33,213 bases of DNA from a virus. The stretch is from positions 1 through 33,213 of the IMG/VR virus record IMGVR_UViG_3300042507_001853; one strand, given 5' to 3'. Numbering within the stretch: position 1 is the first letter of the stretch; every line of letters starts with the position of its first letter. The notes under the pieces are model-generated. The model made no database searches and was not told the DNA's origin. It worked only from the letters and a program-made list of their open reading frames with translations. The position numbers were made by a program, and so were the translations under genes. Shown here piece after piece: positions 826-33,213 of the stretch.

Positions 826-1047
826 ATGAGCACCAAAGCTAGAACCCTCGAGATCCATACTGCAGCCATCATCAGGGCTGCTAAAGCAAACCCCAACATC
901 ACAGTGGCCAGCCTTCAGGATGATCTGGAGCGCGGGGACATTGGCGGCTGGATGAAGATTGCTCAACTCTGGGACATGAATTTCAGCCAGTGGAGCGGGG
1001 CGATGGAGCGCGCCATCGCAGTCATGACCACCTCGAAGGAGGCCTGA
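826..1047 (+). CDS. Small phage protein of unknown function (73 aa)
   Basis: Not recognised. It is a soluble, mostly helical-looking protein without cysteine or membrane segments. AGGAG precedes the start at suitable distance. It is the first gene of the rightward unit and ends two bases before the serine recombinase start, whose Shine-Dalgarno (AAGGAGG) lies inside the end of this gene. Its place suggests an early regulatory or accessory role, but nothing in the sequence shows it. Confidence 0.7.
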   Translation: MSTKARTLEIHTAAIIRAAKANPNITVASLQDDLERGDIGGWMKIAQLWDMNFSQWSGAMERAIAVMTTSKEA

Positions 1048-1049
1048 TC

Positions 1050-1715
1050 ATGACCCGCTACGTAGCCTACTACCGCGTGTCCACCGACCGCCAGGGCCAG
1101 AGCGGCCTTGGCCTGGATGCCCAGCGCACCGCAGTGGCCCAGCACATCGGAGCTGCCGAGCTGGTGGCCGAGTTCACCGAGGTCGAGTCTGGCCGCAAGA
1201 ACGACAGGGAGCAGCTTGCGCTGGCCCTGGCTGCAGCCAAGAAGGCCAAGGCTACCCTGGTCATCGCCAAGCTAGACCGCCTGGCCCGTAACGTCCACTT
1301 CATCAGCGGCCTGCTCGAGTCTGGCGCATCCTTTGTCTGCGCTGACATGCCAGAAGCCGACAGAACTTGGCTGCATGTGATGAGCGCATTTGCAGAACGC
1401 GAAGCGCGTCTGATAAGCGAGCGCACCAGCGCAGCCTTGCAATCGCTCAAGCGGCAAGGCAAGAAGCTCGGCAGCCCGACCCCTGAGATCGGCAGCGCCG
1501 AGGGCGTCAAGGTCATCCAGGCTAAGGCTGACCGTTATGCTGACCGCGTCGGCCCCCTGGTGCGCGACATCATCAAGCGCGGCGGCGCCAGCACCTTGCG
1601 TGACATCGCCGCTGCATTGAGCGCCCGTGGCGTGGAGACGCCCCGAGGCAATACCGAGTGGCATCCCAGCCAGGTTGCCAACCTTTTGAAACGTCTGGAG
1701 ATCAACCATGCATGA
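1050..1715 (+). CDS. Serine recombinase (resolvase/invertase family)
   Basis: Protein of 221 residues. The N-terminal catalytic domain has the nucleophile Ser11 in YYRVSTDRQ, the conserved arginines of AKLDRLARN (residues 73-81), and the helix with AEREARLISERT (residues 115-126). The C-terminal part (about 165-221) resembles the start of the recombinase domain (DIAAALSARGVETPRG) rather than a simple Hin-type HTH. Such enzymes cut and rejoin DNA through a 5'-phosphoserine link. It is much shorter than phage large serine integrases (450 residues or more), so resolution or inversion is more likely than integration, though integration cannot be excluded. Start chosen for AAGGAGG seven bases upstream; a longer in-frame extension back to 990 overlaps the previous gene and is unlikely. 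It overlaps the next gene by eight bases. Confidence 0.9.
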   Translation: MTRYVAYYRVSTDRQGQSGLGLDAQRTAVAQHIGAAELVAEFTEVESGRKNDREQLALALAAAKKAKATLVIAKLDRLARNVHFISGLLESGASFVCADMPEADRTWLHVMSAFAEREARLISERTSAALQSLKRQGKKLGSPTPEIGSAEGVKVIQAKADRYADRVGPLVRDIIKRGGASTLRDIAAALSARGVETPRGNTEWHPSQVANLLKRLEINHA

Positions 1716-13700: not shown

Positions 13701-13848
13701 TGTCCACCAAGCCGGCGACCGGCTCGTATTCTTCAACGGTCTGCTTGGGTAGGATGTCGCCCAGCGGGTCGTCGGACTGAGGCTGCGGCTGCTCCTGGCT
13801 GGCAGGCAGCATGGAATCGAGACGTTGACTCAGCGGGGGGATGGCCAT
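10756..13848 (-). CDS. Large internal virion / DNA ejection protein (gp16-like position)
   Basis: 1030 residues, the longest gene. The N-terminal 160 residues are Pro/Ala/Gln-rich and probably disordered. The block KIWKEMYLSSLMYSPATTERALFGNI (about 390-415) resembles the LPD38-type domain of phage polyvalent proteins, and a long helical C-terminal half follows (FPGGVVPVPMPAGGLVRQIENVLDP; ending AERKYQQMQREAVAE). By place (just before the tail fibre, after two other internal proteins) and size it corresponds to the T7 gp16-type ejection protein that enters the cell ahead of DNA. No transglycosylase motif was recognised, unlike T7 gp16. Start overlaps the previous stop by one base (TAATG). Confidence 0.75.
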   Translation of the reverse strand: MAIPPLSQRLDSMLPASQEQPQPQSDDPLGDILPKQTVEEYEPVAGLVDKLVLTPAKIIRQGVRITPQVSDQAGARAAQEAVQGAAVAAEREATPGAVQAVRRAVAPRRRPAQPPAAQQPMPPATQQEMATAIQAADDALAAPPVSVAPAMPEPVGPEVPGVVIRAVTPEDADKFLSGVDAPAVGVDFNFNYIQAPEDIDKIIDATSKAFASQTDAAKRGVVGDDALKDMAARLNIAPELLQMRAGDTLSAEKLLAARHLLVRSAKSLDELSTRIRTMAPGTEDDNLLLQFRNQLATHAAIQMRLKAAQTETARALRSFRLPVDGTSGLSDPNQITALLNEMGGRANMKNLATAYQQLTLDQQARFTEMAGTTTQQIGKIWKEMYLSSLMYSPATTERALFGNIILSLARGFDTAFASTAGRAADKVITPIFGSNSADSVTTTEAIVEMANFFYSLPKGLSAGLKSFVDDAPVYKVGRDIDKTPDPALSAKLFADPNTPMAHAVDFLGKAVRLPFRAMMAVDEMSKAMISQMETRRLAARDALTAIRNGVDVDAALDGMAMQISAPDARTLDRVHQGVLDGTLQTDLGTFGQALMSMRNKLDNMGAGPVGTVLAPFIKTVINAQKQMVARTPLLNFALDDIRADMAAGGARRQMALGKMSQGAAFMGYGYYLALDGTITGAGPTDPNRRKFLSETTGWMPYSIKVGESEDGRAIYRSYAGLEPIGGMLAMAATLAEIGAVYGKEDDDEWHDLLLYSALLPFKYIGELPFMQGMTNLTDMIEQLKRDPKGEAANAAANKFFGGLAQNFPGGVVPVPMPAGGLVRQIENVLDPTKREVTLDASLPPEQRYFDFLFRSWAAKTPLLSQDIPPSRNLWGQEVKTGEPDALSFIIPFNKKERDLDDVERKLLEIAKARQRFPLNKPERTVANIRLNDAEYSNLLLLMNNTVIDGKNFYGAVAATLTDPALVKQMSFGAYEGVANKLSSIMGQYRDMAVDSPVFQQMHPDAFEQIQRNRMLAERKYQQMQREAVAE

Positions 13849-15236
13849 TACTGCTTCCCTTCTTTCTTCAGAATCTTGACCTGATCTTCACCGCCTGGGA
13901 AAACCACGATGTTGCGTGTGCCCTCGCGCTGGCCTCGGCTGCCTTGGTCAAGGTATCGGACGCCAGGGATACCAGCCTCACGCAGCCGTTGCGCCCCAGC
14001 TGCCGTTTTGCCATCAGCCGCTGTCAGCAGATCACCACCCAAATCGTCCGATTGCAAATTGTACTGACGGGCAAGAACTTGGATCTCTTTGCTTTGGCTG
14101 TTGATGGGTGCGTCAAAGTCAAGCATTTTTGCAACCAACGCATCTGGCACATCCACTGTATAAAAGTGGCCCCCGCGCTCTGAGCGCACCGCCCCACTTT
14201 CTAGCAAATTTGCAAGATGATTTGCATGAGCTTTTAAGTCAGGGTCTTTGTCATAGCTGCCCCTTAAAGTTCTAATAGCAGAAGCGACATTATTGTTTAA
14301 GCCCAAAGCACTTTTAATTACAGCAATTGGGTCTGCAAAACCAAATGGCATTGACTTCGTCGCGTTTTTTCTTGCCGCATCATCAGCGAATATAAGTTTA
14401 TTGCCTGCAAGAGTTGTTCTGTATTCCTCTGCAACACCAGGCGTTTCCGCAAAATACAAGCCATAGCCGTAAGCCTGCGCCCCTTCGCCGCTGCCAATCT
14501 TCCGCGCATCAAACTTGTCGAAACTGTGCGGCGTGCCGTGGAATGCCATCAAGCTGGGCTGCAAACCAGTGCGCTGCATGTAGCCGCCAAGCATCTCGCC
14601 AGCCTTTGGTGCCAGCGCCCTGCCGCCAGAGACAATTGCCCTGCCGACCGGCACAGCATTGAGGCCGACATCCATTAAGGCCAGCGAGGCGTCTGGGGTC
14701 AGTTGCCGCGCAAAGCCGGTGCCCCTGGTCAGCGACTGTCCGGTGCCTGCCTGCTGCAGCGCCATCGGCGTGCCCTGCCATTCTGCTGGCCCAAGCACAG
14801 AGCGAGTTCCCTCTTTGGCCGTACCGACGAAAGGCACCAGGTCAGCCAGACTCAGTTTAATGTCTGTGCCTGGGATCTGCACCTGGCCAAGACCATCCAG
14901 GAAACGGCCAGCCTGCTCCAGCGTCAGGCCCGTCCTCTGGAGCGCACGCTCAAAGGCAGTCTGCTCAATCGGCTTGATTGTCGGCATGCCGCTGCCGGCA
15001 TCGGACATGGTCTGCCTGCCGGCCTGCGCCAGCATCACAGGCCTGCCCAACGGCATCATCTCGCCATAGCTTGTGCGGTAGTAGACAGCCTGGCCATCGT
15101 CGGTGTCCTCGGTGACCAGATCATCATCAACACCCTCTGCCGCTCGCTCGAGCAGACCCTGCCGCACACCGGGCGTGGTGACATACATGTCGGCCATGTA
15201 GATGTCGTCAATCGTTGGCTGCTTGCTTCTCATCAT
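13848..15236 (-). CDS. Internal virion protein with ADP-ribosyltransferase-like domain
   Basis: 462 residues. Residues 1-225 are helical with Gly/Ala-rich stretches like virion core proteins. Residues 230-460 look like the ADP-ribosyltransferase domain of phage polyvalent proteins: AFHGTPHSFDKFD (His233 in the NAD-binding His-Gly pair), IGSGEGAQAYGYGLYFAE (the Tyr and GLYFAE strand, 247-264), a GGHFYTVDVPD strand, and RYLDQGSRGQ then RNIVVFPGG near the end. Such enzymes attach ADP-ribose from NAD to target proteins. The place among ejection proteins suggests it is carried in the virion and delivered into the host, comparable to T4 Alt. Target unknown; I cannot name the third catalytic residue. 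Bases 14221-14400 within it are only about 39% G+C. Confidence 0.75.
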   Translation of the reverse strand: MMRSKQPTIDDIYMADMYVTTPGVRQGLLERAAEGVDDDLVTEDTDDGQAVYYRTSYGEMMPLGRPVMLAQAGRQTMSDAGSGMPTIKPIEQTAFERALQRTGLTLEQAGRFLDGLGQVQIPGTDIKLSLADLVPFVGTAKEGTRSVLGPAEWQGTPMALQQAGTGQSLTRGTGFARQLTPDASLALMDVGLNAVPVGRAIVSGGRALAPKAGEMLGGYMQRTGLQPSLMAFHGTPHSFDKFDARKIGSGEGAQAYGYGLYFAETPGVAEEYRTTLAGNKLIFADDAARKNATKSMPFGFADPIAVIKSALGLNNNVASAIRTLRGSYDKDPDLKAHANHLANLLESGAVRSERGGHFYTVDVPDALVAKMLDFDAPINSQSKEIQVLARQYNLQSDDLGGDLLTAADGKTAAGAQRLREAGIPGVRYLDQGSRGQREGTRNIVVFPGGEDQVKILKKEGKQ

Positions 15237-17002
15237 TGACCTCCGACCACCTTGGACTTGTTCTGCCGGTACGCCTCAACCGAAGCGCGAGCTGCATTAA
15301 TTACAACTGCATCGGCCCTGCGCTTGGCGGCTGCCGCGAATGCCGCCTCGACAGCTGCCGCGTTCATCAGATCAACACCACGCAGCTCTGGCAGCGACTG
15401 CACAGCCTGAGCCTGGTTGGTTTCAGCAGCCTGCGTGAATGCTCTGCCCATGCGGCCACCCGCCGCCCTGGATTGCTGCTCGCCATATGCGCGGATCTCA
15501 GCCGGCGTGGGCAAGACACCTCGAGCATTGGGGGTGCGGGCGAACAGATACAAGGATGTCACCAGCTCGTTGCGTGTCGCGGTTGCCAGTTGCCTTGCTT
15601 CAGCGTCCTTCAGCTCTGGCGGCAGGTTCTCCGACTGAATGCCCACGGCCATGTTGATCAGCCTGGTGCCGTATGAGATGTCGTCGTTGGGGTTGCTCAG
15701 TTGAGACAGGAGCTGCCTCTTGGTGTCTCGCGTTAGCCCCATACTGTTGATGATCTCCTGACTGTTGGCCAGGCCAGCCGCAACCTTCTGCGAAAGGGCC
15801 GCAAATACATTAAGGTCATCCACCTCTTCGACAGGGAACGGGTCAGTCATCCTAAAGTCCCTGGCTTGCTTGGCAAGCCCAGCAGACACAGGTAATTGCT
15901 TAAATTCTTCGTACAACCTCCTGATCTCGCCTGGCGTCTTCGCTTGGTACATCTGCCGAAGAATTATTCCCCCCTGAGTGTCTGCATCTTCGTAGGTGAG
16001 ATCAACCGCTTGCTTTCTGGCGGCAGCAGCTTTGAGGAAGGTTTCCTCGACGCGCATCAATGACGCGAAGTCGTTCTCCCTCAAGTAGTCGATGTGTGCC
16101 CTCAGCCGCGATCCGTCCATCGTTGGCGAATAGATTGTTCCCTCTCGCAACTGTTTTATCGTCACCCTCGGATCTCGAAGATTGGCATCATTCATCAAGC
16201 CCTTGAGCAGAGCATTGACGCGGCCATCTGTGAATGCCTTCTCTACCGCGGCCATGGCATCGCGCTGCACAGCCGGGTCATTGAGTAGCAATGCCTGCTG
16301 GTTGATGTTGGCGCGGAAGATCTGGTAGCGCTCGTTGTAGGTGTCTGGATCTGTGACCGCAAAGTTCTCGAGCAGCTTGATGGAGTGCTGCAGATCCATG
16401 TCGAACTTGATTCGTCGCTCGTTGCGGGTGCGCCGCATCTCCTCATCAAGAGCCGACTTGAGGACACCGTTGCCATAGGTGGCCATGGTTGCGCGGAACT
16501 TGTAGCTGGCCTCCGCATCAACCTTGGCCAGCGACTTGCCCATGCCGTCGATCATGGTGTTGACCTTGGCCTGCACTTGCTGTGCAGTGGCCTGTCCTTG
16601 TTCAACCTGGTTGAGGATCTTGACCAACTCGGCCCGGCCCTCTTCCTCAAACTTGCCGGCAAGCTCCAGGCTGCGGGCCTTGCGAACAGCCTGCTGGTAC
16701 ACGCTGAATGGGTTGCCCCCCAGGTCAAGCGTGGTCAGGTCGCCTCTCTTGGCTGCCTCAATCTGCTGCGGCGTCAGCGGGTTTTCAGCAGTGAACTGCA
16801 GACCCTCACGCTGCCGGGACACCATTGCATCCTGGAACAGGTTGGCGCTCATGCGATCCAGAGTCTCGGCCAGCTGGCCAGCGCCTTGGGCCTGAACACG
16901 CGGGGCGACATAGTTGACCTCACCAATGCCAACCCGCTGCACCGGGGCTGAACCTGGTGCGCGGATGTCTACTCGGCCAGATTCAATGCGTCCGGTTGCC
17001 AT
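15233..17002 (-). CDS. Internal virion protein (gp15-like position)
   Basis: 589 residues, almost wholly helical, without membrane segments or recognised catalytic motifs. The N-terminus has a VRAPGSAPVQRVGIGEVNY-like stretch (residues 11-30), then long amphipathic helices rich in Gln, Arg and Ala, and a basic C-terminus (SKVVGGQ). Size, composition and order match the middle internal virion protein of T7-like phages, part of the channel that forms during ejection. Start and stop are coupled: it begins immediately after the previous gene stop and overlaps the next start as ATGA. Identification rests on context more than on motif. Confidence 0.7.
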   Translation of the reverse strand: MATGRIESGRVDIRAPGSAPVQRVGIGEVNYVAPRVQAQGAGQLAETLDRMSANLFQDAMVSRQREGLQFTAENPLTPQQIEAAKRGDLTTLDLGGNPFSVYQQAVRKARSLELAGKFEEEGRAELVKILNQVEQGQATAQQVQAKVNTMIDGMGKSLAKVDAEASYKFRATMATYGNGVLKSALDEEMRRTRNERRIKFDMDLQHSIKLLENFAVTDPDTYNERYQIFRANINQQALLLNDPAVQRDAMAAVEKAFTDGRVNALLKGLMNDANLRDPRVTIKQLREGTIYSPTMDGSRLRAHIDYLRENDFASLMRVEETFLKAAAARKQAVDLTYEDADTQGGIILRQMYQAKTPGEIRRLYEEFKQLPVSAGLAKQARDFRMTDPFPVEEVDDLNVFAALSQKVAAGLANSQEIINSMGLTRDTKRQLLSQLSNPNDDISYGTRLINMAVGIQSENLPPELKDAEARQLATATRNELVTSLYLFARTPNARGVLPTPAEIRAYGEQQSRAAGGRMGRAFTQAAETNQAQAVQSLPELRGVDLMNAAAVEAAFAAAAKRRADAVVINAARASVEAYRQNKSKVVGGQ

Positions 17003-17638
17003 TTATTTTTCTCCCTTCTTGCCGACGGTTGACCCGGTAAACGGTTCTGCCTTGCCAGCAAAAGTAGTCGCGCCACGGGCCAACGTAATGTTGGCCAGCA
17101 TGCCACCAGCCCTGCGTGCGGCTCCTGCTGCCCCCTGGAACTGGCCGGCCTGGCGCTGGGCCTGAAACAGGTTGAGGGTGTTCTGCAGTTCAGTTGATTG
17201 GAGCAGGGCAGACGCATCCTCAAATCCAAGCACGCGGGCAGACAGCGCGTTGAGATCAGCCACGCTGACATCACGCATGGTTGCCGCCACGTTCTCACGC
17301 TGCACGGCCTCAATCGACCCAGGGCCAAGCGCAACACCACTGGCAGCAGCCCTGGCCCGGATCGCGGCATTGGTCTGGCGCATGTTCCGCAGCAACGTGT
17401 TGCCGGCGATCTGCCAGTTGCGTGCATCGGTTTCTGCCTTCTGCAGCATCCTGCCGGCCTGCACCTCGGCATAGGTCTGGTCGAGATCCGCACGCACATC
17501 TGCGATTGCCAGGGAGTCCCTGGCCTGCAGCAGGTAGGCAGTCTGCTGTTGGATGCCCTGCGCCCGCTGGTACTCTGACGCAGCATAGCTTTCAAGCAAG
17601 CCGCCGAATGATTGAGCTTGTCCTAGTGTGATTGCCAT
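17003..17638 (-). CDS. Internal virion protein (gp14-like position)
   Basis: 211 residues, helical, rich in Ala, Gln and Arg, with a Gly-containing central segment (ASGVALGPGSIEAV, residues 98-111) that recurs in gp14-type proteins of many podophages, and a short basic tail. In T7 the gp14 class forms the outer-membrane part of the ejection conduit. It lies between tail tubular B and the gp15-like gene, the usual place. Two bases separate it from the tail tubular B stop, and it ends immediately before the next start. Confidence 0.72.
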   Translation of the reverse strand: MAITLGQAQSFGGLLESYAASEYQRAQGIQQQTAYLLQARDSLAIADVRADLDQTYAEVQAGRMLQKAETDARNWQIAGNTLLRNMRQTNAAIRARAAASGVALGPGSIEAVQRENVAATMRDVSVADLNALSARVLGFEDASALLQSTELQNTLNLFQAQRQAGQFQGAAGAARRAGGMLANITLARGATTFAGKAEPFTGSTVGKKGEK

Positions 17639-17640
17639 GT

Positions 17641-19857
17641 TCAGTTCCCCGCATTGACCGCAACGCGGTAATCAAGACCCAGCAGCGTCATCTTGAGCGG
17701 CAGCGTCTGCGACACCTCAATGGCCTGCTCGCGGCTGTAACCCAGCACACCGTTGACCCGCTTGATGCCGGTGAAGGTCGGCTCTGGCTCGTCCAGCATT
17801 GGGTTGTCGAACAAGCGGAAAGCCACAGGCTGGTTGTTGATCGTCATGTGCTGGGTGTCCTTGACCACAGCGTTGATCTCCACAATGCGCTTCTTGAATG
17901 CCACGCGGCTGCCGGTCTGCAACTTGATGTCCACAGGCATGGTCTTGACATAGACGGTGACAGGCAGGCCCACTTCGTAGCTGGTCACGCTCTCACGGTC
18001 AAAGGTCACGGCACCACCGGCAGACACAGTCTCGTTGCCCTGCGGCACACCGTCGCAGATCACATTAATGCTCTTGCCGATGTGCGGCAGACCAGAGCCA
18101 ACGCCGCCAGCAGAGCCGCCAGTAAACGCGCAGTCGGTGTAGATCGAATCGCTGAACAGTTCGACGAAGTAGCGGTTGACGCTGTTGAACGTGCGCCTGG
18201 TGACACAGTAGATCTGATTGACATCCACGCCGACATCAATGAATAGGCCGTCGGTGGTGAACTCGCTGGGGCTGGTGATCTGCTGCGAGCGCATCAGAGA
18301 GAAGACAGCCATGCTGCCATCTGTCTCGTTTGTCATCATCAGCAGATCGGACTCGTCCGTGCTGGCGGCACGGCGCATAGCGATGCGCTGCGGGTTTTTG
18401 AGCAGATGGCCAGACAGCAGCGAGATCCGCTGCGTGACGTAGGTTGCCTGCGTGTCCGTGAACACGAACTCGTTGAGGCTCTTGCCCTGGCGCTGAATGT
18501 AGACCGACCCAGACTCAACAGACTGCACCCGCGTGCCAGGCTTGATACCGTTGCGGCTGACCTGCTTGAAGGTAAATGTCAGGGGCGTGATCGGGTCGCT
18601 GTCGCGCTGCGGCACGAAGAACTCACCGCCAGTGGTAAACACCTGGAAGTCGCGGGAGCTGATGATGTCGGTGATGACGTTGAGATCGTTGGTGTCCAGG
18701 GTTGCCTCGACCGCATCATCATCCAGGGACTCGCTAGGCACGAAGTCAAAGAACAAGCCGATCTTGCTGCCCCAGATGGTCGATGGCCGAGACTTGCTGC
18801 CACCAAAGTACAGACGCCCCTCATGGAATGTCACTGTGCGTGGCCAGCCCTTTGCGCTGCTCCACACATCCTCGTAATTGTGTTCCAGTTCCCAGCGGCC
18901 AGCATCAATCGCCGTGGTGTTGAAAAACGGGTATTCAGTAACCGCTTCGACCACAGTCGATGACACATATCTGGTGATCCTGGCACGGCCTTGGGGCTGC
19001 ACGTTGACGTACTGGTTGACCGATTGGGTCGTCCAGGTTGTGATCTCGTAGTTGCTGGTGTTGTTTGGCGCAGTCGCCCATGCGACATCTACGGTCGCAA
19101 CCTTGGTGCTGCCAACATAGTCCTCAATCAGCCTGGTCTGGCCAGAGCCTGTGCCGCCAGTAATGGTGACATACATGCCGTTGTATATGTCATTAGTGGC
19201 ACTAGCGGTGCTTTTGAGTGTGATGGTGGTGCTGCTGCCGGCCTGCGCTGCGCCACTGTCGTGGTGCGTTGTCGAGGCCGTCAGGGTTACGTTTCCAGAC
19301 ACAGCAGACGGTGTCAGCGTCGAGCCGTTGTTGGTATGGAAATCAATGTTGTATGCGTACTTGGGGATGCTGTCGAAGGTAATGGTTGTGGCTGTCCAAG
19401 CGCTGTCGCTGGTGCGAGTGATCCGCACCGGCTGCAGGTCAGGATGCACCACGATCAGCGTGTCAGCTGACTGCGTCCAGCACATATCGTCCACCATGTC
19501 ACTGGTGATGCTGGTCGTCAGATAGTTGTTGGCCCCACCATTGATGGCCGTGATGACCACGCCATTCTTGATGACGTACATGCGCTGGTGCGTAAAGCAC
19601 AGCATGTAGCTGTCGGTCACTGAGAACTGGAATGGCACCAGGCGCACACCGTTGCCGGCGCTTGCGGTGCTGGTGTTGGGCAGCTCGAGGATGTGCTTAG
19701 TGCCAGGCCGGCGGCGCAGTCCACCCTGGGGCTGGATCAGCACGTTGGTGGCCTTGGCCAGAGCGTTGTTGTACTGCTCCAGCTCGACACGCGCCCGCAG
19801 CAGCGGATCCAGTTCGCCGGTCGAGAAGTTGGTCTGGAGGTCAACGAAGCGTGGCAT
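17641..19857 (-). CDS. Tail tubular protein B-like (nozzle) protein
   Basis: 738 residues, beta-rich. The N-terminus is characteristic of this structural class: NFSTGELDPLLRARVELEQY followed by ATNVLIQPQGGLRRRPGTKHI (residues 36-56). Further matches are MVDDMCWTQSADTLIVVHPD (about 118-137) and FHEGRLYFGGSKSRPSTIWGS (about 343-363). It forms the distal tail tube that carries DNA through the outer envelope. The start overlaps the tail tubular A stop by one base, so head-to-tail completion proteins are translated together. Confidence 0.85.
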   Translation of the reverse strand: MPRFVDLQTNFSTGELDPLLRARVELEQYNNALAKATNVLIQPQGGLRRRPGTKHILELPNTSTASAGNGVRLVPFQFSVTDSYMLCFTHQRMYVIKNGVVITAINGGANNYLTTSITSDMVDDMCWTQSADTLIVVHPDLQPVRITRTSDSAWTATTITFDSIPKYAYNIDFHTNNGSTLTPSAVSGNVTLTASTTHHDSGAAQAGSSTTITLKSTASATNDIYNGMYVTITGGTGSGQTRLIEDYVGSTKVATVDVAWATAPNNTSNYEITTWTTQSVNQYVNVQPQGRARITRYVSSTVVEAVTEYPFFNTTAIDAGRWELEHNYEDVWSSAKGWPRTVTFHEGRLYFGGSKSRPSTIWGSKIGLFFDFVPSESLDDDAVEATLDTNDLNVITDIISSRDFQVFTTGGEFFVPQRDSDPITPLTFTFKQVSRNGIKPGTRVQSVESGSVYIQRQGKSLNEFVFTDTQATYVTQRISLLSGHLLKNPQRIAMRRAASTDESDLLMMTNETDGSMAVFSLMRSQQITSPSEFTTDGLFIDVGVDVNQIYCVTRRTFNSVNRYFVELFSDSIYTDCAFTGGSAGGVGSGLPHIGKSINVICDGVPQGNETVSAGGAVTFDRESVTSYEVGLPVTVYVKTMPVDIKLQTGSRVAFKKRIVEINAVVKDTQHMTINNQPVAFRLFDNPMLDEPEPTFTGIKRVNGVLGYSREQAIEVSQTLPLKMTLLGLDYRVAVNAGN

Positions 19858-25276: not shown

Positions 25277-25443
25277 GCGTAGGCCTCCTTCATCAAGCCA
25301 CCCTTGCGACGGCTGCGAGCCTGGCGCTGTTCAGACAGCGCGATGGCGATGGCCTGCTTGCGCGATGTCACTTTGTCGCCAGAGCTGGATTTCAGCTTGC
25401 CGGTCTTGTACTCATGCATGACCTTCTCGACCTTGTCTTTCAT
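25273..25443 (-). CDS. Small conserved phage protein (DUF6496-like)
   Basis: 56 residues: KDKVEKVMHEYKTGKLKSSSGDKVTSRKQAIAIALSE then a basic stretch ARSRRKGG. The order VMHExKxGxLxSG...KVxxRKQAIAIALSE fits a small family I recall as DUF6496, frequent in phages. Highly basic, so nucleic-acid contact is possible. ATGA overlaps on both sides. Confidence 0.72.
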   Translation of the reverse strand: MKDKVEKVMHEYKTGKLKSSSGDKVTSRKQAIAIALSEQRQARSRRKGGLMKEAYA

Positions 25444-26231
25444 GCTTTCTCTCCTTGAAGCAATGGTCTTGCTGTGCCACGCCTGGTTACATTCATCCTG
25501 GCTGCACGGCGCTCGCCGACCTCGCGCTTAAATTCGCTTTCCAGTTGGCTGCGCTTGGCCTCAAAATCTGAGCCGTCAAACTGCGTAATGTCCGGGGCTT
25601 TTGGCATTTCCATCGCAAACTCAGCCGGCTTCTTTGGTGCCACTGGTGCCTGGCCTGGGTCTGGGCTTGATGGCTTGGGGACAAACGTATAAATGTTGGT
25701 TCCTCGGTTGCCACTTTCTGCGGGCGTCAGAACATAGTCATACCCATACATTGATGGGTTTTGAATCACACCCTGTGGCCCTTGCAAGGGAATCCTTTGG
25801 CCAGTGTTCGGATCGTTGACGAAGAAGTCGTAGATCTCGTAGCTGCCTTGTTTGCCGGCTACTGCTTCATAGCTTCTTGCCGTTTTGTTTCTTGAGCCAG
25901 TAGCTATTTGTGCAAGCTCACTTGCATATGCAGCTTCCTTCTGTGCATATGTTGCTGCATCCTTTGAGAACTGCTCAGATGCCCGCTGATACGGCATGGC
26001 AATGTTGGTTGTGTACTCATCCAGCGCGGTCTTGTACTTCGCCATGGAGGCCTCAAACGGGGCCATCTGCTCATTCATTTTGCGAGCGTTCTCGGCAGAC
26101 ATCCGCTCATAGTCGGAGGTCATGGACTCGACTGATCTCGCATACTGTTTGGCCAGGCGATCAATGTTTGAAGTTCTGCGAGATGTCATCCTCGCCAACT
26201 GACGCTGCCTGAATTGGGGTAGGGTAACCAT
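25440..26231 (-). CDS. Coiled-coil phage structural-type protein (263 aa)
   Basis: Function not recognised. Residues 10-110 are helical and likely coiled coil (KQYARSVESMTSDYERMSAENARKMNE and SEQFSKDAATYAQKEAAYASEL). The middle (125-195) is beta-like with NDPNTGQRIPLQGPQGVIQNPSMYGYDYVLTPAE; a Pro-rich linker precedes a basic C-terminus with VTRRGTARPLLQGEKA. The closing motif TRxGxxRxLLxGE also ends the protein encoded next to it (26231-26677), hinting that both bind one partner. Lies between cupin and small genes in the head/packaging unit, so a virion protein is likely. Confidence 0.65.
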   Translation of the reverse strand: MVTLPQFRQRQLARMTSRRTSNIDRLAKQYARSVESMTSDYERMSAENARKMNEQMAPFEASMAKYKTALDEYTTNIAMPYQRASEQFSKDAATYAQKEAAYASELAQIATGSRNKTARSYEAVAGKQGSYEIYDFFVNDPNTGQRIPLQGPQGVIQNPSMYGYDYVLTPAESGNRGTNIYTFVPKPSSPDPGQAPVAPKKPAEFAMEMPKAPDITQFDGSDFEAKRSQLESEFKREVGERRAARMNVTRRGTARPLLQGEKA

Positions 26232-26679: not shown

Positions 26680-26994
26680 TCAACCTCCAATCAATACTTC
26701 ATCAACCTTGTCCGGGTCTGTCTCATCAGTGGCATGAATGCAGAACCAGACGGCATCCTCATGGGCAACGATCCTGTGTTTGGCGCCGGCCTTGATGGTG
26801 ATGCAGGCAGGCGCCGTGTATTCAGTCACGCGGCCATCCATATCCACTGTCACGCGGCCCTGGGCCAAAATGCTCAGGTGGTCATAGCTGTGTGAGTGCT
26901 TGACCGCGAAGTGGTTGGCAGGCAGCGTCATCTGTTTGGCATAGACGCCAGCAGCGAAGTGATGCACAACGCAAGGATCGAAGTCGATACTCAT
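26680..26994 (-). CDS. Cupin-fold protein
   Basis: 104 residues forming a single cupin barrel. Motif 1 shows HSHSYDHLSILAQGRVTV with candidate metal ligands His33, His35 and His39; motif 2 is ITIKAGAKHRIVAHEDA with His73. Substrate unknown; an acid or sugar-related enzyme, a metal-binding sensor or a structural protein are all possible. Start chosen at ATG 26994 because the fold begins there; a GTG at 27060 would add 22 residues unlike a cupin and overlap terminase. No Shine-Dalgarno is visible before the ATG, and a TAGAAT -10 lies eight bases upstream, so the mRNA may be leaderless. Unusual between terminase and virion genes. Confidence 0.82.
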   Translation of the reverse strand: MSIDFDPCVVHHFAAGVYAKQMTLPANHFAVKHSHSYDHLSILAQGRVTVDMDGRVTEYTAPACITIKAGAKHRIVAHEDAVWFCIHATDETDPDKVDEVLIGG

Positions 26995-26995
26995 A

Positions 26996-27021
26996 CCAAT
27001 AGATTCTATTGGACTTTGTAC
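26996..27021 (-). promoter_or_regulatory. Palindromic operator/promoter at the cupin start
   Basis: A 17-base palindrome (CCAATAGA, T, TCTATTGG at 26996-27012) covers a -10-like TAGAAT on the minus strand, with TTGCAT 16 bases further up. It overlaps GTACAAAGTCCAATAG (27006-27021), the motif shared with the tail fibre upstream region. It ends one base before the start codon, so a bound protein would block transcription or translation. Confidence 0.55.
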
Positions 27022-27049
27022 AGCATGCAAGAGATGTGATACCACAGTG

Positions 27050-28612
27050 CTATCGCGCACCGAAAATATCGAAGTCTTGTTGCATGATCACCGTCTGGTT
27101 CATGGGTCTGCCACCCAGGCTGGGGGTGCGGGTCATGCGGTTGTACTCACCGCCGCCCAGCATCAGGTAGCCGAAACTGTCGCCAATGTGCGAATGCTCG
27201 TTCTTGTTTGGCGCATCGCGGAACCTTTCTTGCCCCGCACCGACAGCCACCCGTTTAAAATGGTAACCGCCGCCTAGTGCTTTGCGGAGGAGCTTGCATT
27301 GTCTGTTCACAATCAGGCCTGGCTTGCCGGCGATCAATCGCTGCATGGGCGCCGCCGCAGATTCGCGCCTCACCTTGAAGTCGTTGCTGGCAGTCGGCTG
27401 CGCCCGTAACCCCAGCGTTCGCAAAAAGTCGAAGCTGGTCACCTCGTAGATCGCGTCCCTAGCCATGCCCGCCGGGTCACCCCACAGCAGCACTTGGTGG
27501 TTGGGGTAGTGCTGGTTGAGCAGAGCGAGCAACTCCATGCCGAAGCGTTCGAGGCCCATGTCAAACGTCACGATCTCCTTGTGGATCAGCCACCGGCCAT
27601 TGGGCAGGCGCTGGCCGATGGTGGCCGCCGGCGTCAGACCGAAGTCGAGGCCCACCTGGATCGGCACAGTGGGGTCAACCTCGGTGTCACCAGACATGGT
27701 GCTGTCCTCATACTCTGGCCAAACGGGCCGGCCCTCCTGGACGTAGGTGTACAGCCCACCGGCATAACAGCGGATCCAATCGAGGTTCTTGCCCAGCAGC
27801 ATCTGCGGGTAATAGCCTGGGGGCAAGTTGTGGAGATTCTCTGCAGAAGGGTTGATCTTCCACCACTTGTTTGCAGAGAAGACATGGTCGTTGGCCTCGG
27901 GGTTGTCGGGCAGGTCGTCCGAGTTGACCTCCATCACACCGCCTGGCTGCTTCCAGAACTTCCAGGCATAGGGGCCGGTCATGCGCTCCTTCTCGGCCAT
28001 GTTGTGCCACCAGTGGTCATCGTCCATGGGGTTGGTGTCCATCCATATGCCGTGCCAGGTGGCGCCGCCGTCGCGCTTGGTAGGGTAGCGACCGACCCGG
28101 TGGGTCAGGCCGTCGATCACAGCCTTGGGCAACTCGCGGGCCTCGTTGACCCAGGCGCCGGTCAGCTCAAGCGAGAGCAGCTTTCTGACATCCTTGGGCT
28201 GGTCGAGGGCCAGGAAGATGACCTCGCAGTCGATGCCGGCGGCATCACCACGGGCCGGCAGCCTGATGTGGTGGGTGATGGGTGGCGTCCACAGCATGGG
28301 GCCGAAGGTGGCCTCGGGGAACAGATCCAGCCATGTCTTGATGGTGGTGGTTTTCAGCATGGGGTAGCTGTTTCGCACCACCGCCCACCGGGTGTAGCGG
28401 ATGTTGTCGTGGGGGCTTGGCTTTTGCTGGATGGCCTTCTTGAAGATCTTGGCCGCGCAGCCGTAGCTCTTGCCAGACCCCACCGGCCCCATGATGCCCT
28501 GGACAAAGGCATTGCTCTGGAAGAAGTCGTAGATGACAGGCGACTGCGAGAAGTCGAACCGCAGCCCGGCAGCACCGACCTCCTTGCTGCTCTGCTCTTT
28601 GGTCTTGCTCAT
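27050..28612 (-). CDS. terL: Terminase large subunit
   Basis: 520 residues. The ATPase domain has a Walker A motif GPVGSGKS (42-49) and the Walker B region VIFLALD (131-137) with WVNEA (154-158). The nuclease domain has the acidic residues Asp323 in VGLDFGLTPAA, Asp379 in LLWGDPAG and Asp478 in HSHIGDSFGY. It pumps DNA into the head through the portal and cuts it. It lies downstream of the small subunit with a four-base overlap. The C-terminus (MQQDFDIFGAR) overlaps no functional gene. Packaging type (headful or site-specific) cannot be told from the sequence. Confidence 0.96.
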   Translation of the reverse strand: MSKTKEQSSKEVGAAGLRFDFSQSPVIYDFFQSNAFVQGIMGPVGSGKSYGCAAKIFKKAIQQKPSPHDNIRYTRWAVVRNSYPMLKTTTIKTWLDLFPEATFGPMLWTPPITHHIRLPARGDAAGIDCEVIFLALDQPKDVRKLLSLELTGAWVNEARELPKAVIDGLTHRVGRYPTKRDGGATWHGIWMDTNPMDDDHWWHNMAEKERMTGPYAWKFWKQPGGVMEVNSDDLPDNPEANDHVFSANKWWKINPSAENLHNLPPGYYPQMLLGKNLDWIRCYAGGLYTYVQEGRPVWPEYEDSTMSGDTEVDPTVPIQVGLDFGLTPAATIGQRLPNGRWLIHKEIVTFDMGLERFGMELLALLNQHYPNHQVLLWGDPAGMARDAIYEVTSFDFLRTLGLRAQPTASNDFKVRRESAAAPMQRLIAGKPGLIVNRQCKLLRKALGGGYHFKRVAVGAGQERFRDAPNKNEHSHIGDSFGYLMLGGGEYNRMTRTPSLGGRPMNQTVIMQQDFDIFGAR

Positions 28613-30801: not shown

Positions 30802-31021
30802 GCCTTGCCTCCCGCTTGGCCTGCCTGGCGGCCTGTTGCTGCAGTTCCTTGGCCAGCACCTTGCGGCCCTGCTCGGTGACCACGCTGCCGGCTGTCACCA
30901 GCTTGCGCCGGCGCAGCGACCAGTAGGTGTTCCAGCTCCCCGGCTTGTCGTTGTAGAGCCTGAAGCGCCAGCCCATGGCCAGGTGCTTGAGCATGAAGAT
31001 CTGGTGGTCTGACAGGCTCAT
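30785..31021 (-). CDS. Small winged-helix-like protein before the initiator (78 aa)
   Basis: Has SLSDHQIFMLKHLAMGWRF (helix), WNTYWSLRRRKLVTAGSVVTEQGRKVLAKEL (strand and helix) and a basic, Gln/Arg-rich tail. This is a compact winged-helix-like pattern, LRRRKLVT...VTEQGR, found in phage regulators; specific function is unknown. Start chosen at the ATG overlapping the sigma-like gene stop (ATGA). It overlaps the initiator start by 17 bases, so both are probably co-translated. Confidence 0.68.
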   Translation of the reverse strand: MSLSDHQIFMLKHLAMGWRFRLYNDKPGSWNTYWSLRRRKLVTAGSVVTEQGRKVLAKELQQQAARQAKREARHERTA

Positions 31022-31476
31022 GGATGGCCCCTGCGTCTGGCTTGCTCTTGCTGGCGCCTGTAGTACTGCCAATGGATGATGTCGCTGTGTACTTCCCAGG
31101 GCGACATGCCGGTCACCATCCGTTGCTTGGTTCTGGCCCGGCGCATGGCCTTGAGGTAGATCTGCCTGGCTCTGGCGACGGTGATGCCCAACTCGGCAGC
31201 CACATCATTGAACGTGGCCAGCTCGATGACTACCAGGCGCACCACCAGCTCCTCGCGCTCGGTAAAGTCAATGGCCTCGAGCAGTTTGGTCACCAGCTCG
31301 CGGTTCTCGACCTCGGTCATGTCTGTCTGCAGCTCCCATGACCAGCCATGCCTGGGCAGCTCTGGCAGCTCATCATCCCGGCTGTACCAGATCGCCTTGA
31401 CCTCGCTGGGCAGCTGCGCCGTCATCAGCTTGCCGTAGTACTTGCTGCCCCTGCCTGTGATGTGTGCCTGGCTCAT
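31018..31476 (-). CDS. Sigma region 4-like helix-turn-helix protein
   Basis: 152 residues. The part FTEREELVVRLVVIELATFNDVAAELGITVARARQIYLKAMRRAR (71-115) matches the sigma70 region 4 plan: an opening TEREE helix, a helix-turn-helix, and ARxRQIxxKAxRRxR. Region 2, which binds the core enzyme and the -10 element, is missing, so it is not a complete sigma factor. It could alter host RNA polymerase at -35 elements or act as a phage activator. The N-terminal 50 residues (GSKYYGKLMTAQLPSEVKAIW) are unique. It could explain why several phage promoters here have weak -35 boxes. ATGA overlaps with both neighbours. Confidence 0.75.
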   Translation of the reverse strand: MSQAHITGRGSKYYGKLMTAQLPSEVKAIWYSRDDELPELPRHGWSWELQTDMTEVENRELVTKLLEAIDFTEREELVVRLVVIELATFNDVAAELGITVARARQIYLKAMRRARTKQRMVTGMSPWEVHSDIIHWQYYRRQQEQARRRGHP

Positions 31477-32494: not shown

Positions 32495-32667
32495 AGCAGC
32501 CCCTCGTTGCGGAGCGCCTGGACGAAGTCCATCACATCCTGCCTGTCAGCCCAGCGGCGCTGCTGGGTGTCCCCAGTAACAGTCAGCGCCCAGGCAACCA
32601 CCTCCTGCGGGATGGCCAGCCCCTGCTGGGCCATGTCCAGCAGCGTCTGTGCTTCTTGTTGCGTCAT
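32491..32667 (-). CDS. Small phage protein between methyltransferase and RuvC (58 aa)
   Basis: Short helical protein (QQEAQTLLDMAQQGLAIPQEVVAWALTV then RRWADRQDVMDFVQALRNEG). Not recognised. Overlaps the methyltransferase stop as ATGA and the RuvC-like start as GTGA, which supports expression. Too short for confident fold assignment. Confidence 0.6.
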   Translation of the reverse strand: MTQQEAQTLLDMAQQGLAIPQEVVAWALTVTGDTQQRRWADRQDVMDFVQALRNEGLL

Positions 32668-33213
32668 TCGATTGCCTCTTGAATCCTCTTGCCGATCCAG
32701 CGCACCACCGGCACGGCCCAGCTATTGCCCAGGGCTTTGTAGCGGGGGCCATCAGGGCATTCTGACGCAGGTTTCTTACGCCACGCGATAGCGGTGTATT
32801 CATCAGGGAAGCCTTGCAGTCGCTCGCACTCCACGGGAGTGAGGCGACGCACGGCCATGCCATGCATCAGCGCAGGCGTGCGGTTTGACCCGCTGTCCGC
32901 CGCGCTCAATGTTGGCGCGATGTGCTCGTCATAACCAATGCCGCCAGCCGCGCTTCCTTGGCCGCCTTTGAAGCAGCCTATCGGCTGCGCCACGCCCTGC
33001 GTTGCAGCAGTGTCTACGGTGTAGCTAGTGCCGTCATCGTTCCATCCCTTCCCGTTCTGCGCCTTCTCGCGGGGCGTTACGTCTTGGATTGCAATTGGCT
33101 GCATTACAGCCGTGCCACCTTGAGAACAGGTTGGATTCAACCCGGTGGCTGCATCCAGCGTCTTGCTGGTTTCCTCGTCCATACGAACGTAAAACCCACC
33201 TTCTGGTCGGTCT
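32664..33213 (-). CDS. DNA cytosine-C5 methyltransferase, C-terminal part (cut by window end)
   Basis: The reading frame runs open from the last bases of the window (DRPEGGFYVRMDEETSK before the internal Met at 33182) to the stop. It carries motif IX (RRLTPVECERLQGFP) and motif X (YKALGNSWAVPVVRWIG) of cytosine-C5 methyltransferases, plus the variable target-recognition section with DVTPREKAQNGKGWNDD. It continues the N-terminal part at 1-438. Motif VIII (QRRxR) falls in the missing part. Joining the two ends directly breaks frame; a gap equal to 2 modulo 3 bases restores it. The internal Met at 33182 is not the real start. Confidence 0.9.
   Translation of the reverse strand, partial: DRPEGGFYVRMDEETSKTLDAATGLNPTCSQGGTAVMQPIAIQDVTPREKAQNGKGWNDDGTSYTVDTAATQGVAQPIGCFKGGQGSAAGGIGYDEHIAPTLSAADSGSNRTPALMHGMAVRRLTPVECERLQGFPDEYTAIAWRKKPASECPDGPRYKALGNSWAVPVVRWIGKRIQEAIE

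What the first reader, a model, noticed from the sequence alone, without database searches (positions are those of the whole stretch)
13848..15236. Putative virion-carried ADP-ribosyltransferase effector
An internal virion protein has a C-terminal half with the HGTP...GYGLYFAE...RYLDQGSR pattern of phage polyvalent ADP-ribosyltransferases. Neighbouring genes encode ejection proteins, so the enzyme may enter the cell with the first DNA and modify host proteins before any phage gene is expressed, similar in logic to T4 Alt. With no phage RNA polymerase here, host RNA polymerase would be a sensible target.
Basis: partly seen in the sequence, partly recalled or inferred. Interest (0 to 1): 0.75.

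Follow-up and report, generated by a model that had tools for sequence, protein, structure and literature searches.

The report
Swappable ADP-ribosyltransferase cargo of a podovirus
A short-tailed phage related to a marine methylotroph phage carries, between its ejection-protein genes, a gene whose front half is shared with its relatives while its back half, here an ADP-ribosyltransferase-like enzyme, is one of at least a dozen unrelated parts found at that place, which suggests an exchangeable protein cargo delivered at the start of infection.

Summary
Residues 223-462 fold confidently in AlphaFold2 (pLDDT 91). They match viral ART-PolyVal structures, and all nine top PDB hits are ART-superfamily proteins, though none is individually significant. 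H233 and Y261 are invariant (51/51); the usual third catalytic residue is an invariant Asn (N442), with a conserved Glu (E450) beyond it.

The main result is the architecture. Residues 1-224 are shared with relatives in the same gp15-slot-gp16 position, but the C-terminal half is exchangeable. A relative 92.7% identical over 5.9 kb carries an unrelated C-terminus. Across contigs chosen by the neighbouring tail gene, plus those found through this gene's two halves, about 12 C-terminal types occur (this ART, a second ART, PBECR5 RNase, DUF7178, unknowns), along with effectorless stubs; the tail-gene tree needs at least 28 type changes. The ART half is compositionally foreign (GC3 0.50 versus 0.72-0.80). 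Gene overlaps leave no room for an immunity gene.

So 'virion-carried ART' is well supported by context, not shown. RNA polymerase as target has no support. Virion ARTs and polymorphic phage effectors are known; a swappable slot in a podovirus ejection operon appears to be a new variant.

The parts
13848..15236 (-). Slot gene: 462-aa putative ejected effector (whole ORF)
   Evidence: ORF list. Starts in an ATGA overlap with the upstream gp15-like gene; its TAA stop overlaps the ATG of the gp16-like gene (TAATG)
15039..15236 (-). Residues 1-66, N-terminal tail 'MRSKQPTIDDIYMADMYVTTPGVRQGLLERA', one of at least two exchangeable N-terminal ends
   Evidence: 72-97% identical in L001, L058-060, L143, L147, L151; replaced by 'MAYSxIExxYLSALTA' ends in other relatives
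14565..15038 (-). Residues 67-224, shared middle module (putative docking/ejection part)
   Evidence: 54-92% identical in most of the 26 loci; alignment A2 has 46 invariant columns; matches stop near residue 225
14592..14618 (-). Residues 207-215, conserved junction ALAPKAGEM just before the cargo
   Evidence: Found as ALAPxAGxM in 23 of 73 slot ORFs ahead of unrelated C-termini; 32-38 bp islands of about 90% identity here in L147 and L145
13857..14552 (-). Residues 229-460, ADP-ribosyltransferase-like cargo domain
   Evidence: Pfam PF18760; AF2 model pLDDT 91.3; Foldseek viral 33 hits E<=1e-3, PDB top nine all ART superfamily; GC3 0.496 against 0.757 +/- 0.084 elsewhere
14538..14540 (-). H233 codon, motif I (HGT), end of strand 1
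   Evidence: Invariant in 51/51 relatives
14454..14456 (-). Y261 codon, motif II (YFA), strand 2
   Evidence: Invariant in 51/51 relatives
13911..13913 (-). N442 codon, start of strand 'RNIVVF', position of the PARP motif-III Glu by my alignment
   Evidence: Invariant in 51/51 relatives
13887..13889 (-). E450 codon (FPGGE), acidic residue after that strand
   Evidence: Conserved in all 41 FPG-type relatives; the other ten have D in that loop
10756..13848 (-). gp16-like internal virion protein, 1030 aa, directly downstream
   Evidence: PHROG 6651 internal virion protein, E 3.8e-19; conserved up to 90% in loci with other cargo
15233..17002 (-). gp15-like protein, 589 aa, directly upstream
   Evidence: Position in operon and synteny; weak match to MEP301 gp26
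17003..17638 (-). gp14-like protein, 211 aa
   Evidence: Size and position after tail tubular protein B
17641..19857 (-). Tail tubular protein B, used as the neutral marker for the slot survey
   Evidence: PHROG 376 tail protein, E 1.1e-122

Best explanation
The gene encodes an ejected cargo protein of a MEP301-like podovirus. Residues 1-224 are a carrier that is packed with the internal core proteins and leaves the head through the gp14/gp15/gp16-type channel (inferred). Residues 229-460 are an H-Y-type ADP-ribosyltransferase domain of the ART-PolyVal family (shown at the level of sequence family and predicted fold), which after entry uses host NAD+ to modify a host macromolecule before any phage gene is expressed (inferred; target unknown). 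The cargo half is a recently acquired, exchangeable module: relatives of the same lineage put other enzymes, other unknown domains or nothing behind related carriers (shown). Exchange probably runs through the conserved junction near residues 207-215 and the stop/start overlap with the gp16-like gene, helped by the phage's own recombinases (inferred).
For: ART domain: Pfam PF18760 in 51/51 relatives; AF2 pLDDT 91.3; 33 significant viral structural matches, many named ART-PolyVal-like; nine of nine top PDB hits are ARTs, whereas a control model from another protein family gave a mixed list at similar E-values; H233 and Y261 invariant. Ejection context: between gp15-like and gp16-like genes, overlapping both, same order in dozens of relatives. 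Carrier/cargo split: 92.7% DNA identity with L001 over 5917 bp that stops at residue 215, with an unrelated C-terminus after it; in L059, L143 and L147 homology resumes at window 13850-13852, the stop codon; about 12 C-terminal types and effectorless stubs of 220-237 aa, 161 aa in MEP301; 28 type changes on the tail-gene tree. Foreign origin: GC3 0.496, lower than all 3228 equal-sized windows of other genes.
Against: No virion proteomics and no enzyme assay are known to me for this protein. The third catalytic position is Asn rather than Glu, Asp or Gln, so the domain could be a weak enzyme or a binder. No PDB match is individually significant (best E 0.16). Some cargo is far larger (slot proteins up to 956 aa), which may be hard to thread. 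The window protein alone scores below the Pfam gathering cut-off. Carrier function is inferred from position and conservation only. The GC3 drop is not seen in most other loci checked.
Confidence: 0.68

Rival explanations
1. An Alt-like modifier of host RNA polymerase that redirects host transcription to phage promoters.
For: The phage has no RNA polymerase of its own and would use the host enzyme; T4 Alt does this (PMC5512222).
Against: Nothing in the sequence points to a target. Close relatives swap this domain for an RNase-like domain, DUF7178, unknown domains or nothing, so it is dispensable for transcription in the lineage. Alt belongs to another ART clade.
Confidence: 0.12
2. A counter-defence effector: it modifies a host defence protein, or consumes or competes for NAD-derived signals, and the slot diversifies because hosts differ in defences.
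For: Fast exchange of unrelated domains at one place (28 changes) is what an arms race would give; phage NAD/ADP-ribose enzymes are interpreted in this way in PMC5512222 and PMC9503650.
Against: No defence system or host is known for this phage; no test was possible. Compatible with, not exclusive of, the best explanation.
Confidence: 0.35
3. A nucleic-acid ADP-ribosyltransferase (DarT-like logic) that marks host DNA or RNA, or protects the entering phage genome.
For: Some ARTs modify DNA (DarT, PMC9503650), and another cargo domain in the slot is RNase-like (PBECR5).
Against: No match to the DarT family was found by Pfam; no nucleic-acid-binding feature was recognised.
Confidence: 0.12
4. A polymorphic toxin used against competing bacteria or phages, like MuF toxins of temperate phages.
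For: Conserved N-terminus plus variable C-terminal effector is the polymorphic-toxin layout (PMC5576092).
Against: No immunity gene: the stop codon overlaps the next gene's start here, and in complete relatives the slot ORF abuts the gp16-like gene. No prophage carrying the carrier was found in 84,980 bacterial and archaeal genomes, and no MuF domain was found.
Confidence: 0.07
5. A catalytically dead ART-fold domain that only binds a ligand or has a structural role.
For: Asn at the third catalytic position in all 51 relatives.
Against: H and Y of the NAD pocket, the glycine-rich GxGEGxQxxGxG stretch and an acidic residue after the fifth-strand motif are kept across the family; stubs and unrelated cargo show that no structural role of this domain is needed.
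Confidence: 0.15

Closest known systems
ART-PolyVal / Tox-ART-HYD2 domains of phage polyvalent proteins (Iyer et al. 2017, PMC5512222; Pfam PF18760)
   Same: Same Pfam family by sequence, same predicted fold, H in strand 1 and Y in strand 2; predicted to enter the cell with the DNA.
   Different: Belongs to a sub-family with 'HGxPHxFxxFD..KIGxGEGxQ' and 'N[FYI]VVFPGxE'; the strand-5 Asp of H-Y-D is not there as such: an invariant Asn in the strand and a Glu three residues past the Pro. It is the only recognised enzyme domain in a short protein.
Phage T4 Alt
   Same: Head-packaged ART that acts before phage gene expression; phage relies on host RNA polymerase.
   Different: Alt is of the R-S-E clade and a myovirus head protein; here H-Y motifs, a podovirus ejection operon, and exchangeable cargo.
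MuF polymorphic toxins of temperate phages (Jamet et al. 2017, PMC5576092)
   Same: Conserved virion-associated N-terminus with variable C-terminal effector.
   Different: No MuF domain, no immunity gene, no prophages found; the carrier sits in the ejection-protein operon rather than the packaging module.
T7 gp14/gp15/gp16 ejection proteins (PMC8954989) and N4 virion RNA polymerase
   Same: Operon order and position of the gene; N4 shows that a large enzyme can be ejected from a podovirus; domain mosaicism of ejection proteins is known.
   Different: The slot gene is an extra gene between the gp15- and gp16-like genes with cargo that is swapped wholesale.
Methylophilales phage MEP301 gp25
   Same: Same position between gp15-like and gp16-like genes in the nearest isolated phage (TerL 74% identical).
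   Different: 161 aa only and without any cargo domain.

Membership tests
ADP-ribosyltransferase superfamily, ART-PolyVal (PF18760) | Sequence match to the family profile | tested here: met
   E 1.9e-5 (25.9 bits, below the 31.2 cut-off) for the window protein; 51/51 relatives match, best E 3e-10
ADP-ribosyltransferase superfamily, ART-PolyVal (PF18760) | ART fold | tested here: met
   Confident model; significant matches to viral ART-PolyVal-like models; PDB top nine all ARTs but with E >= 0.16
ADP-ribosyltransferase superfamily, ART-PolyVal (PF18760) | His in strand 1 and Tyr in strand 2 | tested here: met
   H233, Y261 invariant 51/51 and in the first two strands of the model
ADP-ribosyltransferase superfamily, ART-PolyVal (PF18760) | Asp/Glu/Gln in strand 5 (H-Y-[EDQ]; D in HYD2) | tested here: inconclusive
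ADP-ribosyltransferase superfamily, ART-PolyVal (PF18760) | NAD+-dependent transfer activity | not testable with these tools
   Needs purified protein
Phage polyvalent proteins | Two or more domains of unrelated biochemical activity in one polypeptide | tested here: not met
   Only one known domain recognised in the 462 aa
Phage polyvalent proteins | Encoded with virion genes and injected with the DNA | tested here: inconclusive
   Position in the ejection operon is clear; injection itself not testable
T4 Alt (R-S-E ARTs) | R-S-E catalytic residues | tested here: not met
   H-Y motifs invariant
MuF polymorphic toxins | MuF domain | tested here: not met
   No Pfam MuF match in the window protein or 41 slot relatives
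MuF polymorphic toxins | Conserved N-terminus with variable C-terminal effector | tested here: met
   About 12 C-terminal types behind related N-termini
MuF polymorphic toxins | Adjacent immunity gene; temperate phage | tested here: not met
   Gene overlaps leave no room for an adjacent immunity gene; no prophage found in genome contigs

The most novel reading that the evidence does not exclude
A family of MEP301-like podoviruses has a dedicated cargo slot in its ejection apparatus: a small carrier protein, sometimes present without any cargo, to which very different enzymes are attached and exchanged between phages at a conserved junction. It would be a natural, modular protein-injection system of podoviruses, with effector choice varying like a polymorphic toxin but acting at the first step of infection.
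Probability: 0.55. Interest if true: 0.72.

Novelty: new variant of a known kind. Interest (0 to 1): 0.55.

Why it matters
Virion-carried effectors have been proposed widely but are usually single cases inferred from domain content. Here one genomic position gives a comparative test: related carriers with an ART, a second unrelated ART, an RNase-like domain, DUF7178, unknown domains or nothing. That separates packaging from effector function, predicts that the other unknown C-termini are early-infection effectors too, and offers a list of candidates for anti-host or counter-defence activities in a lineage related to a phage of marine methylotrophs. If the carrier is confirmed in virions, reporter fusions in a laboratory podovirus would make podovirus protein delivery directly testable.

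Tried and rejected
(1) Sequence search of the PDB with the protein (best E 0.17, an ADP-ribosylating toxin) and with the family profile (no relevant hit): too distant. (2) Full-length alignment of carrier and ART fragments (A3) misaligned; the domain alone (A4) was used for structure. (3) Host by prophage search: none of 84,980 genomes encodes the carrier by the patterns used; host remains unknown. (4) DUF7178, the commonest alternative cargo, looked to me like an EndoIII-type HhH-GPD enzyme from the motif 'LSPQ...K...DTHA'; the structure (pLDDT 77) and Foldseek (one DNA glycosylase at rank 26, E 0.9) do not support this, so it is left open. (5) MEP301 gp24 as homologue of the slot gene: rejected; gp23 matches the gp16-like gene and gp25 lies in the slot. 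(6) Toxin with adjacent immunity gene: rejected because no room exists. (7) Low GC as a general property of cargo: rejected, it holds for the window and a few loci only.

Full report
CHECK OF THE OBSERVATION. The ORF is real, but it lies on the minus strand: 13848-15236, 462 aa, ATG start; the + strand of the same stretch is broken by several stops. Pfam finds one family in the protein, ART-PolyVal (PF18760), residues 229-275, E 1.9e-5, 25.9 bits against a cut-off of 31.2, and only the first third of the profile. That is weak on its own, but all 51 members of a family alignment match it, the best at 3e-10, and 23 also match DUF3990, another family of the ART clan (PMC7955679).

WHAT THE C-TERMINAL HALF IS. 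An AlphaFold2 model of residues 223-462 with 51 sequences has mean pLDDT 91.3 and pTM 0.81. Against predicted viral structures, 33 matches have E <= 1e-3 and many are named ART-PolyVal-like. Against the PDB no match is significant alone (best E 0.16), but the nine best are all of the ART superfamily: RES-Xre, ParT, cholix and exotoxin A. As a control, the model of an unrelated protein family (DUF7178) gave a mixed list of folds at similar E-values, so the ART list is not what a random model returns. In the alignment, H233, Y261 and N442 are invariant in 51 of 51. PARPs have motifs HGS/HGT, YFA and YNE (PMC7955679); here they are HGT, YFA and TRN. By my alignment (inference) the Asn sits where PARPs have the catalytic Glu; an acidic residue follows the strand: E450 in all 41 'FPGxE' members, Asp in the other ten. 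Iyer et al. describe polyvalent ARTs as H-Y-D with D in strand 5 (PMC5512222). Membership of the ART superfamily is therefore well supported; catalysis is likely but not shown.

WHAT THE N-TERMINAL HALF IS. A search with the whole protein gave many contigs sharing only residues 226-460, but also one, L001, sharing only 1-225. A search with the N-terminal half gave 26 loci, most of whose matches end near residue 225. Window and L001 are 92.7% identical in DNA over 5917 bp, from the tail genes to window position 14592 (residue 215), after which the proteins are unrelated. On the other side, in L147, L143 and L059 identity resumes at window 13850-13852, the stop codon of the slot gene, and runs on through the gp16-like gene. 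The exchanged segment is thus bounded by a point inside the gene and by the gene's end.

SLOT SURVEY. To survey the position I fetched 80 contigs through tail tubular protein B, which does not depend on slot content, and read the ORFs between the gp15-like and gp16-like genes, together with the loci found earlier. Clustering the last 250 residues gave 14 groups; two of them are truncated contigs of larger groups, which leaves about a dozen kinds: DUF7178 (PF23802), PBECR5 RNase-like (PF18814, E 6e-23), the window's ART type (window, L003, L065), a full-length ART of another sub-family (L145: 52.8 bits, profile 1-136 of 140), and several kinds without any Pfam match. The survey is not fully independent, because the window's ART type in L003 and L065 came from the ART searches. 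Effectorless slot proteins of about 220-237 aa occur in L151, L169, L170 and L181-183, and the nearest isolated phage, MEP301 (TerL 74% identical), has 161 aa without cargo in that place. On a tree of tail tubular protein B (54 rows) the cargo type must have changed at least 28 times, where 12 is the least possible for 13 types (stubs counted as one) and 36.5 the mean of shuffles; the window's nearest row, 99% identical, has another type. Cargo turnover is therefore very fast.

ORIGIN AND MEANS OF EXCHANGE. The ART half has third-position GC 0.496; all 3228 windows of equal size in other genes of this phage are higher (mean 0.757, SD 0.084). The carrier half is 0.719. So the ART half looks recently acquired; most other loci do not show such a step, so this is a statement about the window. 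A conserved ALAPxAGxM stretch stands just before unrelated C-termini in 23 of 73 slot ORFs, with 32-38 bp islands of about 90% identity in otherwise diverged neighbours. I infer that this stretch and the conserved gp16 start serve as homology for exchange; the phage encodes RecT and YqaJ recombinases.

MECHANISM, SHOWN AND INFERRED. Shown: ART family and predicted fold; position between ejection-protein genes with overlaps on both sides (ATGA and TAATG); carrier/cargo modularity; absence of a recognisable RNA polymerase gene. Inferred: packaging in the head core and ejection through the gp14/15/16-type conduit (as in T7, PMC8954989); modification of a host molecule early in infection. The target is unknown. 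The RNA-polymerase idea is possible but has no support, and relatives manage with other cargo or none. Counter-defence fits the fast turnover better, again without direct evidence. A competitive toxin is unlikely, since there is no adjacent immunity gene and no prophage was found.

KNOWN OR NEW. Head-packaged ARTs (T4 Alt), ARTs and PBECR domains in injected polyvalent proteins (PMC5512222, PMC9503650) and polymorphic phage toxins (PMC5576092) are known; domain mosaicism of ejection proteins has been noted (PMC8954989). I found no description, in the papers searched, of an exchangeable cargo slot in a podovirus ejection operon; the library lacks most subscription journals. I rate it a new variant of a known kind.

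Noticed in passing
1-438 and 32664-33212, minus strand: The two ends of the contig hold what look like the two parts of one C-5 cytosine DNA methylase gene (start part at 1-438, end part at 32664-33212, PF00145), so the genome may be nearly complete with a short missing piece inside that gene.
   Followed up: partly
L145:4926-6362: A second, clearly different ART-PolyVal domain (full-length profile match) in the same slot of a close relative, so ARTs appear to have entered the slot more than once.
   Followed up: partly
L151:5523-6209; L169:14660-15370; L181:4692-5402; L061:17133-17618 (MEP301 gp25): Slot proteins without any cargo domain.
   Followed up: yes
L044:7703-8923 and relatives: DUF7178, the commonest cargo, has invariant W-Y, S-x-Q, K, T-x-D and R positions suggestive of an enzyme; the fold could not be assigned.
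   Followed up: partly
L036, L147, L159, L164, L215 slot C-termini: A large cargo type ('PAVPLExxGxVT...') of about 530 aa without any Pfam match (and no PHROG match for L036), in at least 11 contigs.
   Followed up: no
31018-31473, minus strand: Small ORF with a sigma-70 region 4 match (PF04545, E 3e-6): a possible phage sigma-like or DNA-binding factor in a phage without RNA polymerase.
   Followed up: no
26680-27060, minus strand: A cupin-domain protein (PF07883) directly downstream of the terminase large subunit gene.
   Followed up: no
990-1715, plus strand: Serine recombinase with resolvase domain and only a weak recombinase domain, as in MEP301 ORF4; whether the phage can integrate is unclear.
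   Followed up: no
25440-26231, minus strand: Another gene with low third-position GC (0.57 on average) and no PHROG match, possibly also acquired.
   Followed up: no
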